DNA of 64,000 nt from a virus: the IMG/VR virus record IMGVR_UViG_3300049847_000198, positions 1-64,000 of that record; one strand, given 5' to 3'. Both the position numbers and the translations under genes were made by a program. Positions 12,901 to 62,759 of this stretch are shown here, piece after piece. Position 1 is the first letter of the stretch; every line of letters begins with the position of its first letter. The notes below the pieces were generated by a model. The model was not told where the DNA came from. It saw only the letters and a program-made list of their open reading frames with translations, and did no database searches.

Positions 12901-14106
12901 TCACCTTGCGGATAGCAGTGCGTCTTCCTTCTTCAACGGGTCGGCTTGATGGATCGCAATAGGCGACACCTCAGCGGCCGAGTCCCTCGAAAGGCGAATT
13001 ACCCCGATTGACACCAGGGCACGGGCGAGAACGACTCTGGCACTTGCATGGTCGCGATGGCATTGCGAACCACAACTACAGTTGTGTTCTCGTTCCGAAA
13101 GTTCTTTCTTCTTGACGACCCCGCAATCGGGGCACTCTTGGGATGTGCCTCTTGGATCAACCTGAACGAATACCCGCGCAGCATTTGCAGCTTTCACGGA
13201 GATTTGATTCATGAAGATTCCCCAAGAGGCGTCACTTATCGACTTGGCCAAGCAATGATTCTTGACCATCCCTTTGATGTTGAGTTTCTCGGCCGCAATG
13301 AACGAGAAGCCGCGAACGAGTTCTGTGCTCCGACGATGACAGAACGATCTCCGTTGAGCGGCAATTCGCTCATGTTGCCGTTGCAGGCGAACTACCGCCT
13401 TGCGGCGATTTTGGCTGCCCTTCTTCTTGCGAGACACCGACCTCTGTAAGCCTCGCAGCTTCTTCTCTGACTTGCGGTAGAAGCGTGGATTTTCAATCTG
13501 CGATCCGTCGCTCAACGTAGCGAATGACTCCAATCCAACGTCGATGCCGACTGAGCCTTGATCTTCAAGGTTCTTGATCGTCGTGGACTCAGTAACAACG
13601 ACTTGGCCATACCAACCTGATGCCCGGCGGATGATCCTGAGTAGTTTCTGCGTCTTGGAAATTCGTTGGTTTCCGCAGCGAATCCGAACCAATCCGAGTT
13701 TCGGAATCGAGACAAGACTATCTCCGCGAACGTACTGGCCGACCGCTGCATACTCCATGCTGTTGTACCGTTTCCAAGAACGGAATCGCGGAAACCCAAC
13801 CTTGCCGGCACCTGCCTTTGCCCGGCGGAAGAATGCCTGTAATCCGCGATCAACGCGACGCAGGGCGTCACGCTCAAAAGCCACTGGAATCGAAGCAAGC
13901 CCCACCATTCGGGCACGCTGCTGTGTCAACAACGCTTGCTGCTGATTGTAATTCACAGACCCAGCACGCCGCTCATAGGCTTTGATTCGCTGATCCAAGG
14001 CTCGATTGAAGATTCCACAGCAAGTCCGCATCCACGAAGAGAGTGTCTCTTCTTGGGCGGGCTTGAGATAGAGTTTGAATTCAATCGTTTTCATCGGCTT
14101 GTTCAC
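12901..14106 (-). CDS. tnpB: TnpB, RNA-guided nuclease of IS200/IS605-type elements
   Basis: A 401-residue TnpB with the helix-turn-helix N-terminus (TCCGIFNRALDQR), a RuvC nuclease with D189 (GIDVG), E273 (AAEKLNIKGM) and D352 (HRDHASA), and a zinc finger C325/C328/C343/C345. All catalytic residues appear intact. TnpB cuts DNA guided by an omega RNA made from its own 3' end. No TnpA transposase is nearby. The start is GTG 14106, overlapping the preceding small gene by GTGA; ATG 14094 is the alternative. It sits on the border between two oppositely transcribed modules, with about 30 bases to the next gene. Confidence 0.85.
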   Translation of the reverse strand: MNKPMKTIEFKLYLKPAQEETLSSWMRTCCGIFNRALDQRIKAYERRAGSVNYNQQQALLTQQRARMVGLASIPVAFERDALRRVDRGLQAFFRRAKAGAGKVGFPRFRSWKRYNSMEYAAVGQYVRGDSLVSIPKLGLVRIRCGNQRISKTQKLLRIIRRASGWYGQVVVTESTTIKNLEDQGSVGIDVGLESFATLSDGSQIENPRFYRKSEKKLRGLQRSVSRKKKGSQNRRKAVVRLQRQHERIAAQRRSFCHRRSTELVRGFSFIAAEKLNIKGMVKNHCLAKSISDASWGIFMNQISVKAANAARVFVQVDPRGTSQECPDCGVVKKKELSEREHNCSCGSQCHRDHASARVVLARALVSIGVIRLSRDSAAEVSPIAIHQADPLKKEDALLSAR

Positions 14107-27202: not shown

Positions 27203-27230
27203 TTGATTCCGTTTTTGGTTGTGGTACAAT
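27203..27230 (+). promoter_or_regulatory. Promoter of the recA leader
   Basis: TTGATT (27203-27208), 16-base spacer, TACAAT (27225-27230). Predicted transcription start at 27237, exactly the first base of leader strand A. Confidence 0.75.
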
Positions 27231-27236
27231 CACGCC

Positions 27237-27349
27237 GCAACCGACAAGTCGAATCCAAGTCTCTAAAATCACGGCCACTCTCCCTGCTTGTTGATTCGCT
27301 GTCGGTTGCACTTCAGCGGCTATCGCTTCTTGGGGAGTGGTCTTTTTTT
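27237..27349 (+). ncRNA. Interleaved-hairpin leader RNA of recA (copy 1)
   Basis: A: GCAACCGACA (27237-27246) pairs with A' TGTCGGTTGC (27300-27309), 10 bp. B: GGCCACTCTCC (27273-27283) pairs with B' GGGGAGTGGTC (27332-27342), 11 bp with two G-U. Order A-B-A'-B' makes an H-type pseudoknot or two competing states. B' is followed by seven T (27343-27349), then GGAG (27353-27356) and ATG 27363. Loops are 26, 16 and 22 nt. It can work as an attenuator of recA or be released as a small RNA of about 113 nt. The second copy before the next gene strongly supports structure conservation. Confidence 0.65.
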
Positions 27350-27362
27350 ATTGGAGTGTTGC

Positions 27363-28193
27363 ATGAAGAAGAAAAAGTCAGAGCAAGAAGAAGTTGACGA
27401 CATTGCGGCAGCGATTAACAAGAAGTTCGGAGACGGGACAGTTATCAATCTATCCGATTACAAGCAGGAATACGAAGGAGTTCCAACTCCGTCCACTCTC
27501 TTGAACGAAGCGATTGGGGGCAAAGGGTTTCCTCGCGGCAGGATCATTGAATTGATCGGTGCCGAGAGCAGCAGCAAGACGACAATGGCGTTGCAGACGA
27601 TTGGACTTGCTCAGTCTCGCGGAGAACGCTGCGCCTACATCGACGCTGAACACGCCTTGGACTTGGCATGGGCGACCAAGCTCGGCGTGAATCTTTCTAC
27701 GCTTTCTTTCAATCAACCTGGATGGGGAGAGCAGGCGTTACAGATCGCCGAGGCGTTCATAAAGTCTAAGCGATACTCGATTGTGGTGGTTGATTCAGTG
27801 GCCGCTCTGACTCCGAAGGTCGAACTGGAAGGGGACGCCGGGGATCAGCACGTTGGGCTTCAAGCCCGCATGATGGGCCAAGCCATGCGGCGTCTCACGG
27901 GAGTTATCAGCGAGAGCAAAACATGCGTCATTTTCATTAACCAGATGCGAGACACAATCGGCAAGTTCGGATACGGACCAAAGACGACTACTCCTGGTGG
28001 ACGCGCATTGAAGTTCTACGCCAGCGTTCGCGTTGAACTCTCTCGTATATCGACCATTAAAAAGGGAACTCTCGCTTCAGGGATCGAGGTGAAGGCGAAG
28101 GTCATCAAGAACAAGATGGCTGCTCCTTTCAAGGAAGTGCATTACAACCTGATGTACGACCGAGGAATCGTGGACCCCGACAAAAAAGCGTGA
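27363..28193 (+). CDS. recA: RecA/UvsX-type recombinase, short form with altered Walker A
   Basis: A 276-residue RecA core with the strand-exchange ATPase: Walker A region at residues 66-73 reads GAESSSKT where bacterial RecA has GPESSGKT, so the normally invariant Gly before Lys is Ser. Walker B VVVDSVAAL (about 141-149), the loop L1 QARMMGQAMRR, and NQMRDTIGKFGYGPKTTTPGG with loop L2 are present. The C-terminal domain of bacterial RecA (about 60-70 residues) is missing. It starts at ATG 27363 with GGAG at 6 bases. It is behind the structured leader, and a promoter for the next gene lies inside its end. Confidence 0.85.
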   Translation: MKKKKSEQEEVDDIAAAINKKFGDGTVINLSDYKQEYEGVPTPSTLLNEAIGGKGFPRGRIIELIGAESSSKTTMALQTIGLAQSRGERCAYIDAEHALDLAWATKLGVNLSTLSFNQPGWGEQALQIAEAFIKSKRYSIVVVDSVAALTPKVELEGDAGDQHVGLQARMMGQAMRRLTGVISESKTCVIFINQMRDTIGKFGYGPKTTTPGGRALKFYASVRVELSRISTIKKGTLASGIEVKAKVIKNKMAAPFKEVHYNLMYDRGIVDPDKKA

Positions 28194-28199
28194 TACAAT
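28171..28199 (+). promoter_or_regulatory. Promoter of the second leader, inside the recA end
   Basis: TGGACC (28171-28176), 17-base spacer, TACAAT (28194-28199). Predicted start at 28206, again the first base of strand A. The -35 is weak. Confidence 0.6.
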
Positions 28200-28205
28200 T
28201 GGGAC

Positions 28206-28312
28206 GCGACCTGCTACGAAGTGTCCCGATTTCAAACCTGACCCCGTTCTGGCCATTTCGTCGCGCAGGTCGCACTCCGCGTAGAAGGAACCATCAAGAA
28301 CGGGGTCTTTTT
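28206..28312 (+). ncRNA. Interleaved-hairpin leader RNA (copy 2)
   Basis: A: GCGACCTGC (28206-28214) with A' GCAGGTCGC (28265-28273), 9 bp. B: GACCCCGTTCT (28240-28250) with B' AGAACGGGGTC (28297-28307), 11 bp, no mismatch. Then TTTTTGTTTTTTT (28308-28320), GGAG (28321-28324) and ATG 28331. Loops are 25, 14 and 23 nt, nearly the same as copy 1, although the paired sequences differ. Both copies have GCACT at the A' end. A further possible stem GGGAC/GTCCC (28201-28205 with 28223-28227) lies upstream of +1 in part. Confidence 0.65.
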
Positions 28313-28330
28313 GTTTTTTTGGAGCACGCC

Positions 28331-28732
28331 ATGACTAGACGGTGGTTCGCTATAGAAAACATCCTTCCGGCCGGAATGGGGCACGGAAAGGTTTACTTCA
28401 TTGCTACAGAATGTATGAGGTATTGCAAAGTCGGATGGTCAAGGAATCCCTATTCGCGTCTTGAACAGATCAAGGTGTGCTCTCCATTCAAAATCAACCT
28501 AATAGCCACCATTGACGATCCAGAGAGAACGCAGGAACTCTACTACCATAGGCTCTTCGCCAAGGAGCGAATGAACGGCGAGTGGTTCTCTATCACTGGA
28601 AGACTGAGAAGTTTCCTGGACTCATACGCCGAGTTGTTCAGTTCAGAAGAAATGTATGACAGATGCGTCTCGGAGATGCAGGATCGCCTTGAGGAGGAAC
28701 GGGCAGCGGCGGATTCCTGTATACCATTTTAG
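28331..28732 (+). CDS. GIY-YIG-like protein (T5orf172/Mug113 type)
   Basis: A 133-residue protein with the T5orf172/Mug113 variant of the GIY-YIG nuclease fold: VYFIATE (Y22-F23-I24), YCKVGWSRNP (K33-V34-G35), an Arg in YSRLEQIK, E69 in the helix TQELYYHRLF, and GEWF. It probably cuts DNA, as homing or mobile-type endonucleases of phages do. It stands alone behind a leader RNA similar to that of recA, which suggests tight expression control or movement of leader and gene as a unit. Confidence 0.65.
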   Translation: MTRRWFAIENILPAGMGHGKVYFIATECMRYCKVGWSRNPYSRLEQIKVCSPFKINLIATIDDPERTQELYYHRLFAKERMNGEWFSITGRLRSFLDSYAELFSSEEMYDRCVSEMQDRLEEERAAADSCIPF

Positions 28733-52510: not shown

Positions 52511-54052
52511 CTACGCCGGAACGACTGCGACTGTCGGCGATAGGCGGGACTGCCGAAAGCAGTCAACGAGACACTGCTCAGCGAACTTTGCGTCCGACTC
52601 CGTCACCAACAGGCTATCGTGGATCGTGCCAAGAAAACGCTTCGGTCTCGCCTTGAGGAACGCGGCAGCAGCTTTGTGGATCACGTACTGGCTTTCGATG
52701 TTCTGGAGTAGCTTCGGTAAGACCGAGTGATGTGACCGCTTCAAGGTGCAGATGATCTTCCAGACGTGAGGAAATTCCCTGACAAACAAATCTCGGAACA
52801 GGCGACCCGGAACGTCTTCTTTTTCGCAGAAGATGCACTCTCTGAAGAATGTCTGTTTGAACTCATGCCGAGCCATTGATGCGTAGCTGGTGCCAGCAGG
52901 CACTAGCTTTTGGAAGTGATCGTAGAGTTGGCCTTCACAGCAGAGCGTGATGTACCGCTCGCACTCTTTCCAGTGATGCTTTACCAGCCTGATCGCCGAC
53001 AGAACATCGCTTTCGATGCTCTTGCTCAGAGGAACTGCCGAAGTCGGTTCTTGGTACAATTCCTGTGTGTTTTTGCAGTCAAAATCACCGTAAGTCGTTT
53101 CTTTAGTTGATTTTTCGTTAGATTGTTGCATCATAAGGGTGTGGGAGGGAGAGGGGCTTTCCTGCGGTTGTGTGGCGTTGTCTTGTGCGTTTGTTACATT
53201 TCGCGTCAGACGTTCAGTTGTGACTTTAGCTACACTGTAGTCGTTTTGTAATGAGTACCGTTCGATCTTGTGTATCAACTCACGTACCTTGTCAGACTCC
53301 ACGGTGTCGCTGAGGTTGAAAAGAAACATCAACAGACATCCGAAGATGAACGGCTGGCTGTTTCGGACATCGGTGTTCCAGAGTGATTCTCCGTGCCATC
53401 GCAGGTATTGCCGCAGGTCCGAGGACAGGTTCGTTAGGTTACTATGAACTCGCCCGTACTTGTCTTCCATCAAAAAGAATTGATGCGTTGAGATCATGGT
53501 GATGCTTGACTCGTCCATCCATTGAGCGAACTTCGGGTTCTTGGTTGCCGAATAGTCCTTGGCGAATCGCACATGCCGCAGAGCCGCTGGCGTGTCGATT
53601 TCCAGCCCTCTAAGCAGTTGGTACAGGGATTTGATCGTCGGACTTGAGAACCTGTCCTGCTGATCGTTTCGGAACTTGTCGATCTTGCGGTTCAAGCGGC
53701 GGTTCTTGACCGGACGGATTACTCCGTAGGCGTATCGGAATGTGCCTGTCATGCGGTAGCTCCTTGAATAAAAACCAGCCCTATAGCTCAGATCGACCTC
53801 GATGACACCATTTTCTCTAAGCCAGTCGATCCACTTCGAGAGTCTCTTCCACGAAACGACCTCCCGTAGCTTGTCGATCTTCAAGTAAACCCAATCGTCC
53901 GGGTCGTATCGCCGCGAGTCGTGCATGAATCGCCCGTAGACGCAGTGAACGATGTAGGCGGCTTCCTCCCAGTGCTTCGAGAGTTCTGGCGGCGCACGAC
54001 TGGCGATATCCAGCGTTTCAGGCAGCGTCAGATATCTCTGCGTCCAAGCCAC
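52511..54052 (-). CDS. Palm-domain polymerase-like protein, divergent
   Basis: A 513-residue protein. The N-terminal 100 residues look like a winged helix. The core has RVHSNLTNLSSDLRQYL (residues 201-217), then WNTDVRNSQPF with D228 and Q233 (equivalent to motif A, D-x4-Q), then a helix KQTFFRECIF, RSHHSVLPKLLQNIESQY and the motif C-type IHDSLLVTES (H478-D479). This is the arrangement of family A DNA polymerases or single-subunit RNA polymerases. A Thr/Gln/Ser-rich insertion (about 275-345) separates the motifs. GTG start 54052. No other replicative polymerase is seen, so this may be the phage polymerase. Confidence 0.55.
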   Translation of the reverse strand: MAWTQRYLTLPETLDIASRAPPELSKHWEEAAYIVHCVYGRFMHDSRRYDPDDWVYLKIDKLREVVSWKRLSKWIDWLRENGVIEVDLSYRAGFYSRSYRMTGTFRYAYGVIRPVKNRRLNRKIDKFRNDQQDRFSSPTIKSLYQLLRGLEIDTPAALRHVRFAKDYSATKNPKFAQWMDESSITMISTHQFFLMEDKYGRVHSNLTNLSSDLRQYLRWHGESLWNTDVRNSQPFIFGCLLMFLFNLSDTVESDKVRELIHKIERYSLQNDYSVAKVTTERLTRNVTNAQDNATQPQESPSPSHTLMMQQSNEKSTKETTYGDFDCKNTQELYQEPTSAVPLSKSIESDVLSAIRLVKHHWKECERYITLCCEGQLYDHFQKLVPAGTSYASMARHEFKQTFFRECIFCEKEDVPGRLFRDLFVREFPHVWKIICTLKRSHHSVLPKLLQNIESQYVIHKAAAAFLKARPKRFLGTIHDSLLVTESDAKFAEQCLVDCFRQSRLSPTVAVVPA

Positions 54053-55048: not shown

Positions 55049-55111
55049 CACTAGCCAGACGGGATTGGTTCTGCCCACGAGTGCTCTTTCTGGCCTTGAG
55101 ACACATTAAAA

Positions 55112-55183
55112 TGCGACGTGACGGAATCGAACCGCCTTTCAGGGAGTTGAAAATCCCTTGCATGACCAATCTGCCAACGCCGC
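55112..55183 (-). tRNA. tRNA with 8-base anticodon loop (TTC/Glu or TCA)
   Basis: A complete cloverleaf on the minus strand, 72 nt: acceptor GCGGCGT/ACGTCGC (one G-U), D-arm GCAG-ATTGGTC-ATGC (one mismatch), anticodon stem AGGGA/TCCCT, variable GAAA, T-arm GGCGG-TTCGATT-CCGTC, discriminator A, no CCA encoded. The anticodon loop TTTTCAAC has 8 bases: reading TTC gives Glu (most like phage Glu loops), reading TCA gives an opal suppressor; both leave one extra base. It follows the gene at 55190 on the same strand. Confidence 0.75.
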
Positions 55184-55189
55184 ACGAAC

Positions 55190-61201: not shown

Positions 61202-61260
61202 TTGACTGTTTAATCTCCAGTGAATACAAGGCTGCCATGAATCATCATGGCAGCCTTTTT
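61202..61260 (+). promoter_or_regulatory. Promoter overlapping a terminator before the HNH gene
   Basis: TTGACT (61202-61207), 17-base spacer, TACAAG (61225-61230). The 11-bp terminator stem GGCTGCCATGA/TCATGGCAGCC (61230-61255) starts in the -10 box, followed by TTTTTCTTTT, then GGAG (61265) and ATG 61275. RNA from this promoter starts inside the stem and cannot form the terminator, while read-through RNA from the upstream gene can. So the hairpin insulates the HNH gene. Confidence 0.7.
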
Positions 61261-61274
61261 CTTTTGGAGAACTA

Positions 61275-62759
61275 ATGAACATTTCGCGAGAAGATTTACA
61301 AAAGCTGATTATTGTCAAGGACTCTGGATGCTGGCACTGGAACGGAACAATTCATCTTCCTCACTACTGCCATGTGATTGTCGATGGCGAGAAATGCAAC
61401 GCTCGTCGAGTGGTTAGGCAAGTTTTTGGACCACCATTCAACGAAAATCTTGCCCTGCTAAAGACCTGTAAAAACAACTACTGCGTTGCGCCTGCGCATC
61501 ACCTGACCGGCGATGAACGGTTTCTGAAAAACTACGCCGTCTCGGAAACTGGCTGCCATGAATGGAAGGGCGGGATTACGGTTAATGGATACGGAGTGAC
61601 AGGGAACGGAGGTGGTTGCAAAAGAGCGCACAGGAGAATGTGGGAATTGAAGGTTGGTCAAATCCCGCAAGGGATGGTCATCAGGCACCTATGCCATAAT
61701 CGAAAATGTGTTAATATCGACCACTTAGCAGTTGGCACACACCAAGACAATATGGACGACATGGTTAAGGCTGGCAGAGCCTGTAACGGATGGAAGAACG
61801 GCAATTACAAGAAGTCTTACCTAGATGAAAAAGACATCCTCGAAATCAGGCAACTTGCCTCCGAAGACGAGTTTACTCTATGGGAAATCGCCGAGGCTTA
61901 CGGAGCCGATGTAAGCTATATCTCAGACATCGCAAAAGGTGATTGCTGGCCACAGGTTGGCGGACCAAGAACGAAAAGAGAAGACGATCCGGTTTTCAAA
62001 TACATCACCAAGGGCAGCGAAAAGTTCAACGCCAAGATCACCGAGTCCGACGCAGTTCGTATCAGAGAACTATGCGACGAAGGAGTTCTCACACAGGGAC
62101 AGATTGGAGATCAGTTCGGCATCGACCAAACAGAAGTCTCTGACATCGCTCACGGAATCATCTGGAAACACGTTGGAGGGCCGATTGTTGAAGGCCACTA
62201 CCTGCCGACAAACCGAGAATACGACGTTGGCGAAGACCATCACGCAGCCAAGATCACTGAGATCGACGTCAAAGAGATTCGCAGGCTGTATGCCACAAAA
62301 GAAATGAATCAACAGCAGCTTGCCGAGCGATACGGACTAAAGCAGTGCCATGTATCCGACATCGTACTGAGTGTCTCGTGGAGTCACGTTCCGGCAGAGC
62401 ATGAGATCAAAAAGAAAACCACTGGCGTAAACTCGCAAGGCAAAGCCTGCAAACTGACAGAAAATGATGTTATTCAAATGCGAGACTGCTACCGCAACGG
62501 AGCATCGTTCTCTGAAATTGCCAAAATGTTCAAAATCTCTCCAGATGCCGCCAGAAGCACGATCATTGGACTACGATGGAGTCATGTTCCCGGAGCGATT
62601 CCCGACGCCGGAAGAAACATCACAGAGAAGGATGCGATCAAGATAAAGGCGATGCTACGAGATGGAGAGAAGCCTAGATCAATCGCAAAAGAACTAGGAG
62701 TCAAGCCGGGCGTTGTCTACAAAATATCAAGCGGTCAGTCATGGTCTCATGTGTCTTAG
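61275..62759 (+). CDS. Modular HNH homing endonuclease with five HTH units
   Basis: A 494-residue protein. Residues about 18-78 form a first HNH_3-type domain with a lost catalytic His, residues 93-152 a second, intact one (CHEWKGG; IRHLCHNRKCVNIDHL). Five tandem HTH units follow (about 181-230, 252-302, 325-373, 391-439, 448-494), each ending with Trp-x-(H/Q)-Val. It resembles phage homing endonucleases in which the HTH units read the DNA site, but with an unusually long array. It has its own promoter and GGAG. Confidence 0.75.
   Translation: MNISREDLQKLIIVKDSGCWHWNGTIHLPHYCHVIVDGEKCNARRVVRQVFGPPFNENLALLKTCKNNYCVAPAHHLTGDERFLKNYAVSETGCHEWKGGITVNGYGVTGNGGGCKRAHRRMWELKVGQIPQGMVIRHLCHNRKCVNIDHLAVGTHQDNMDDMVKAGRACNGWKNGNYKKSYLDEKDILEIRQLASEDEFTLWEIAEAYGADVSYISDIAKGDCWPQVGGPRTKREDDPVFKYITKGSEKFNAKITESDAVRIRELCDEGVLTQGQIGDQFGIDQTEVSDIAHGIIWKHVGGPIVEGHYLPTNREYDVGEDHHAAKITEIDVKEIRRLYATKEMNQQQLAERYGLKQCHVSDIVLSVSWSHVPAEHEIKKKTTGVNSQGKACKLTENDVIQMRDCYRNGASFSEIAKMFKISPDAARSTIIGLRWSHVPGAIPDAGRNITEKDAIKIKAMLRDGEKPRSIAKELGVKPGVVYKISSGQSWSHVS

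What the first reader, a model, noticed from the sequence alone, without database searches (positions are those of the whole stretch)
27203..28332. Two interleaved-hairpin leader RNAs with the same architecture before recA and a GIY-YIG-like gene
Both leaders begin with a TACAAT promoter whose predicted +1 is the first base of strand A, followed by A-B-A'-B' in pseudoknot order, a U-tract, GGAG and ATG. Stems are 10/11 bp and 9/11 bp, loops 26/16/22 and 25/14/23 nt. The paired bases differ but pair perfectly in each copy (covariation), and both have GCACT at the end of A'. This is a good candidate for an undescribed structured RNA: attenuator, sensor, or released small RNA.
Basis: partly seen in the sequence, partly recalled or inferred. 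Interest (0 to 1): 0.85.

Follow-up and report, generated by a model that had tools for sequence, protein, structure and literature searches.

The report
Twin pseudoknot leader RNAs in phage
An unclassified virus, probably a phage, carries two look-alike RNA leaders, in front of its recA gene and the next gene, that are predicted to fold into the same knotted hairpin ending in a transcription stop signal; they look like paired on/off switches, but no relatives were found and the function is untested.

Summary
Two leaders in a 112-kb virus record each begin at an extended -10 promoter (TGNTACAAT), carry four strands in A-B-A'-B' order, and run into a U-tract, GGAG and ATG. In a scan of the whole record they rank first and second. 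It places B in the apical loop of a ~20-bp hairpin, directly against C'. That makes a compact H-type pseudoknot with nearly equal dimensions in both copies (loop 1 12/13 nt, junction 2/0 nt, loop 3 22/23 nt). Nine of 20 A/B pairs differ between copies, seven on both sides, and none is broken. My best explanation is a duplicated cis-acting attenuator: the hairpin offers B, B' pairs with it as it emerges, and stem 2 plus the U-tract terminates transcription before recA or the GIY-YIG gene unless B is blocked. A translational operator (T4 gene 32 or IncI repZ style) or a stand-alone small RNA is not excluded. No homologue was found in Rfam, IMG/VR, phage or plasmid collections, so covariation rests on two paralogues.

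The parts
27203..27230 (+). Leader 1 promoter: TTGATT (27203-27208), 16-nt spacer, extended -10 TGGTACAAT (27222-27230)
   Evidence: sequence match only
27237..27246 (+). Leader 1 strand A (GCAACCGACA), first base = predicted +1
27248..27260 (+).
   Evidence: 50 of 2000 shuffles as stable
27261..27272 (+). Leader 1 loop 1 (12 nt)
27273..27283 (+). Leader 1 strand B, in the apical loop of the A+C hairpin
27286..27299 (+). Leader 1 strand C'
27300..27309 (+). Leader 1 strand A' (TGTCGGTTGC), followed by ACTTC
27332..27342 (+). Leader 1 strand B' (GGGGAGTGGTC), terminator-like arm
27343..27349 (+). Leader 1 U-tract (T7); GGAG SD follows at 27353-27356
27363..28193 (+). recA-family gene
   Evidence: Pfam RecA E=3.7e-95
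28171..28199 (+). Leader 2 promoter: TGGACC (28171-28176), 17 nt, extended -10 TGATACAAT (28191-28199); the TGA is the recA stop codon
28206..28214 (+). Leader 2 strand A (GCGACCTGC), first base = predicted +1
28216..28226 (+). Leader 2 strand C (ACGAAGTG-CC)
   Evidence: 73 of 2000 shuffles as stable
28227..28239 (+). Leader 2 loop 1 (13 nt)
28240..28250 (+). Leader 2 strand B (GACCCCGTTCT), directly abutting C'
28251..28261 (+). Leader 2 strand C' (GG-CATTTCGT)
28265..28273 (+). Leader 2 strand A' (GCAGGTCGC), followed by ACTCC
28297..28307 (+). Leader 2 strand B' (AGAACGGGGTC), terminator-like arm
28308..28320 (+). Leader 2 U-tract (TTTTTGTTTTTTT); GGAG SD follows at 28321-28324
28331..28732 (+). 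GIY-YIG-like gene (MUG113 / T5orf172 domain)
   Evidence: PF13455 E=4.5e-8

Best explanation
A duplicated cis-acting 5' leader that works as a pseudoknot attenuator. Shown by sequence: promoter-like site, start position, three helices in the same order and spacing in both copies, terminator-like end, SD and ATG directly downstream, no ATG inside the leader. Inferred: transcription starts at the first base of A; A:A' and C:C' fold first as a long hairpin that holds B open in its apical loop; when B' leaves the polymerase it pairs with B, forming a GC-rich stem stacked on the hairpin right before the U-tract, and transcription ends, releasing a pseudoknotted RNA of about 110 nt. Anything that covers B or opens the hairpin (a phage or host protein, an antisense RNA, a ligand) would let polymerase read on into recA or the GIY-YIG gene, so both genes would answer to one signal. 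The signal is not identified.
For: Both leaders sit between a gene's stop codon and the next gene's SD, with the U-tract ending 13 nt (leader 1) or 10 nt (leader 2) before the ATG. Such placement twice, before two different genes, fits a cis element better than a free small RNA. B:B' is 11 bp, duplex energy -19.7/-19.9 kcal/mol, followed at once by U7 or U5GU7; runs of seven T occur only seven times in 112 kb, two of them here. Estimated pseudoknot energy (-39.3/-40.3) beats the best nested fold of the transcript ending at the U-tract (-34.9/-37.4). The copies have diverged yet keep every A and B pair, with seven double changes. Up to the end of A' the predicted fold is the A+C hairpin in both.
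Against: No experiment. Only two copies, no homologue. A:A' and B:B' do not share bases, so the leader lacks the usual mutually exclusive antiterminator. A terminator stem closed by long-range pairing may be slow compared with polymerase. Helix C is only moderately better than chance in each copy (p about 0.025 and 0.037). Once the SD region is included, nested folds of similar energy compete with the pseudoknot. The host, and therefore its promoter and terminator rules, is unknown.
Confidence: 0.45

Rival explanations
1. Translational operator or enhancer. The pseudoknot ends 20-23 nt before the ATG and is followed by an unstructured U-rich stretch with the SD. A phage single-strand-binding or RecA-like protein could nucleate on the knot and spread over the SD (as T4 gp32 does), or the knot could help the ribosome load (as for IncI repZ).
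For: Position of knot, U-rich gap and SD in both leaders; recA encodes a single-strand nucleic-acid binder; the T4 gene 32 operator is a 5' pseudoknot followed by an unstructured region holding the ribosome-binding signals (PMC535899).
Against: A GC-rich stem directly followed by U7 is what an intrinsic terminator looks like; the T4 knot is about 28 nt, far smaller; the second copy precedes a GIY-YIG gene, not a single-strand-binding protein.
Confidence: 0.2
2. Two small-RNA genes with their own promoter and terminator that act in trans; the downstream genes merely lie next to them.
For: Promoter at the 5' end and terminator-like 3' end define a ~110-nt unit with a paired 5' end.
Against: U-tract directly abuts the SD of the next gene in both cases; outside the leaders and their own antisense strands, complementarity to loops and strands in this record is short (at most 12 nt for the apical loops); apical loops differ between copies.
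Confidence: 0.13
3. 5'-stabiliser or processing element: a structured, base-paired 5' end that protects the recA and GIY-YIG mRNAs from RNases, with the U-tract as a ribosome standby site.
For: Predicted +1 base is the first paired base of stem A in both copies.
Against: A plain hairpin would do; a conserved long-range B:B' next to a U-tract is not needed.
Confidence: 0.1
4. RNA-mediated antitermination element like HK022 put: the folded nascent RNA rides on polymerase and suppresses downstream terminators.
For: Two related structured RNAs at the start of phage transcripts, as putL and putR (PMC9378689).
Against: put RNAs are ~70 nt with two stem-loops, and that paper's text has no mention of a pseudoknot; here the element itself ends in a terminator-like stem.
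Confidence: 0.05
5. Chance complementarity around ordinary promoters and terminators, or copies kept similar by recent duplication without a function for the A stem.
For: One of six shuffled genomes gave a single hit as strong as these; only two sequences are known.
Against: Two adjacent hits, each at +1 of an extended -10 site and each before an SD, with matching spacing; diverged sequence with seven double changes and no broken A or B pair; 36 geometry-matched viral controls score at most 28.6.
Confidence: 0.07

Closest known systems
T4/RB69 gene 32 translational operator
   Same: 5' mRNA pseudoknot followed by an unstructured region and SD, in front of a gene for a single-strand nucleic-acid binding protein (PMC535899)
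   Different: Knot of about 28 nt without a terminator-like stem or U7; operator extends >40 nt with UUAAA repeats; one gene only
IncI-alpha ColIb-P9 repZ pseudoknot (known here only from titles in the reference list read; mechanism from memory)
   Same: Apical loop of a hairpin pairs with a segment just upstream of an SD
   Different: Short kissing helix that activates translation under antisense-RNA control; no promoter-anchored stem or U-tract known to me
Transcriptional riboswitches with pseudoknot aptamers (ZTP, fluoride crcB)
   Same: Promoter-proximal pseudoknot coupled to an intrinsic terminator
   Different: There the pseudoknot and the terminator compete (PMC10687018); here stem 2 is itself the terminator-like stem; no Rfam match
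HK022 putL/putR
   Same: Two related structured RNAs at the start of phage transcripts
   Different: Two stem-loops, ~70 nt (PMC9378689); here a single pseudoknot that ends in a terminator-like stem
HDV-like ribozymes (strand order from memory)
   Same: Same strand order (P1-P2-P1'-P2') with the 5' end in P1
   Different: No Rfam hit even at E<=10; A-B spacing is 25-26 nt; the -10 site ends 6 nt upstream, so almost nothing would be there to cleave off

Membership tests
H-type RNA pseudoknot | Loop of a hairpin pairs with a downstream single strand, two stems stacked with a short junction | tested here: met
   A+C hairpin, B in apical loop, junction 2/0 nt; estimated energy below nested folds of the transcript ending at the U-tract; predicted only
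Intrinsic terminator / attenuator | GC-rich stem directly followed by a U-tract | tested here: met
   11-bp B:B' then U7 / U5GU7
Intrinsic terminator / attenuator | Short closed loop in the terminator hairpin | tested here: not met
   B and B' are 48 and 46 nt apart and the loop contains C' and A'; an 8-bp local hairpin at 27322-27341 exists in leader 1 only
Intrinsic terminator / attenuator | Termination occurs and is regulated | not testable with these tools
   needs a transcription assay
Any Rfam family (riboswitch, ribozyme, phage RNA) | Score above gathering threshold | tested here: not met
T4 gene 32-type operator | UUAAA/UAAA repeats between knot and AUG | tested here: not met
   U-tract instead of UUAAA repeats
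T4 gene 32-type operator | Binding and repression by the gene's own product | not testable with these tools
   needs binding and repression assays
HK022 put RNA | Two adjacent stem-loops | tested here: not met
   strand order is A-B-A'-B'

The most novel reading that the evidence does not exclude
A new class of phage control RNA in which the 5' arm of the terminator is displayed in the apical loop of a promoter-anchored hairpin, so that termination needs pseudoknot formation and any molecule that covers the loop switches the gene on; one virus uses it twice to co-regulate recA and a neighbouring GIY-YIG gene.
Probability: 0.3. Interest if true: 0.7.

Novelty: new variant of a known kind. Interest (0 to 1): 0.5.

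Why it matters
If the pseudoknot is the terminator, it would show a way to control recombination genes in which termination depends on a long-range pairing that can be blocked at an exposed loop. It would also be a clean system for testing whether pseudoknots can act as intrinsic terminators. The two copies provide matched natural variants for swap experiments.

Tried and rejected
Rfam at gathering and at E<=10: nothing relevant. RecA relatives in IMG/VR (63 loci, at most 54% identity): no comparable leader upstream. GIY-YIG, ParB-like, terminase and polymerase-like proteins as baits in IMG/VR: no relatives. Portal, terminase, GIY-YIG and polymerase-like proteins as baits in annotated phages: only remote hits. 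Leader DNA against phages and plasmids: only matches inside recA. Pattern scans: TACAAT-GCRACC-GGTYGCACTYC gave none; GCRACC...GGTYGCACTYC...T5 gave 12, none with a convincing B helix; promoter/GCACTYC/T5 geometry gave 36, none with both stems. Covariance model with the A stem only, on 42 recA-virus records and the own record: only the two known copies, plus one chance-level hit at E=0.06. TnpB as bait to guess the host: relatives too remote. A hairpin of the promoter region with the A or C region in read-through RNA is strong in leader 1 (1 of 200 shuffles) but weak in leader 2 (12 of 200), so not relied on. HDV-like ribozyme, put RNA and HEARO/omega-RNA considered and set aside. MAFFT does not align helix C correctly, so pair counts for A and B were made in a register set by the stems.

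Full report
What was checked. The window is the first 64 kb of a 112,081-bp virus record; a portal protein and a major head protein were identified by PHROGs, so it is most likely a tailed phage. Leader 1: TTGATT-16-TGGTACAAT, A 27237-27246, B 27273-27283, A' 27300-27309, B' 27332-27342, T7, GGAG, ATG 27363 of a RecA-family gene. Leader 2: TGGACC-17-TGATACAAT, A 28206-28214, B 28240-28250, A' 28265-28273, B' 28297-28307, T5GT7, GGAG, ATG 28331 of a small GIY-YIG-like gene. In both, strand A begins 7 nt after the last base of the -10 element. In leader 2 the recA stop codon TGA is the TGN of the extended -10. Neither leader contains an ATG.

Is it more than chance. A scan for A-B-A'-B' plus T-run over the whole record ranks the two leaders first and second (54 and 52.6; next 45.6); whole-genome shuffles give single best hits of 43.6 to 54.6, so one such hit alone would be weak, but two adjacent ones at promoter starts are not. 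Shuffled transcripts form both stems in the required places in 1 of 20,000 and 0 of 20,000 cases. Among 65 TGNTANNNT sites on both strands these two have the strongest 5'-anchored helix. Thirty-six viral stretches chosen only for the same promoter/GCACTYC/T-run spacing score at most 28.6 on the same measure.

Folding the transcript as it would emerge shows a further helix inside A:A' in both copies. In leader 1 CGAAUC:GAUUCG and CAAGU:GCUUG; in leader 2 ACGAAGUG:CAUUUCGU and CC:GG. Each is moderately better than shuffled interiors (50 and 73 of 2000). The combined hairpin has z = -5.3 and -4.8. With it, B sits in the apical loop, 12/13 nt from C and 2/0 nt from C'. This is the layout of a standard H-type pseudoknot with stacked stems: stem 1 about 20 bp, loop 1 12/13 nt, junction 2/0 nt, stem 2 11 bp, loop 3 22/23 nt. 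A Dirks-Pierce-style estimate gives -39.3 and -40.3 kcal/mol against -34.9 and -37.4 for the best nested folds of the transcript ending at the U-tract. With the SD region added, nested folds in which B:B' forms and strand C touches the SD reach -37.7 and -42.5, so alternative states are possible and were not resolved.

Covariation. Setting the copies in register by the stems, 11 of 20 A and B pairs are the same, two differ on one side, seven on both sides, and none is broken. Overall the transcripts are significantly but not strongly alike (4 of 500 shuffles reach the alignment score). That pattern fits an old duplication with selection on structure. It rests on two sequences only.

Search for relatives. 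None was found in Rfam, in IMG/VR by protein baits or by three DNA patterns, in annotated phages or plasmids, or with a covariance model in 42 recA-carrying virus records and the own genome. The terminase, GIY-YIG, ParB-like and polymerase-like proteins also found no relatives in IMG/VR.

How it may work. The position between one gene's stop codon and the next gene's SD, twice, argues for control in cis. The end of the leader (GC-rich B:B' directly before U7) looks like an intrinsic terminator, except that its 5' arm is held in the apical loop of the preceding hairpin. The best reading is a default-off attenuator whose terminator is the second stem of a pseudoknot, giving a released ~110-nt RNA, with read-through when B is masked or stem 1 is opened. 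The trigger is unknown. The main rival is translational control by a protein that recognises the knot, as T4 gp32 does (PMC535899); a trans-acting small RNA, a 5' stabiliser and a put-like antiterminator are less likely.

Verdict. A well-supported candidate structured RNA in two copies, more specific than first described, with an unproven function. Novel as far as Rfam and the searched collections show, but not a new principle until termination is tested.

Noticed in passing
window 52511-54052 (-) and L068:1470-3245 (+): Two paralogous proteins, 40% identical, without a Pfam match (neither) or PHROG match (first one; the second was not run), carrying motifs that by eye resemble family A polymerases / T7-like RNA polymerase (D[VI]RNSQPF, R-x3-K-x2-FF, HDSL). 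Remote relative in a 595-kb uncultured phage (LR756511).
   Followed up: partly
window 55111-55184 (-): tRNA gene with an 8-nt anticodon loop (UUUUCAAC); ARAGORN reads a four-base anticodon UUCA. Could be a frameshift-type tRNA or a decayed one.
   Followed up: partly
window 12901-14106 (-): TnpB (IS605 OrfB) gene in the virus; closest genome hits are archaeal and cyanobacterial MAGs at 33-49% identity.
   Followed up: partly
L066:12-2966 (-): Helicase of the ResIII/DEAD family with a long insert that looks like an intein by eye.
   Followed up: no
window 61220-61275 (+): A simple strong hairpin (GGCTGCCATGA..TCATGGCAGCC) with a U-tract directly abutting the GGAG of an HNH + HTH-repeat gene, the same end arrangement as the two leaders but without the A stem.
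   Followed up: partly
window 27215-27244: 11-bp inverted repeat across the -10 element and strand A of leader 1; read-through RNA from upstream could sequester strand A (1 of 200 shuffles as stable). A weaker counterpart exists in leader 2.
   Followed up: partly
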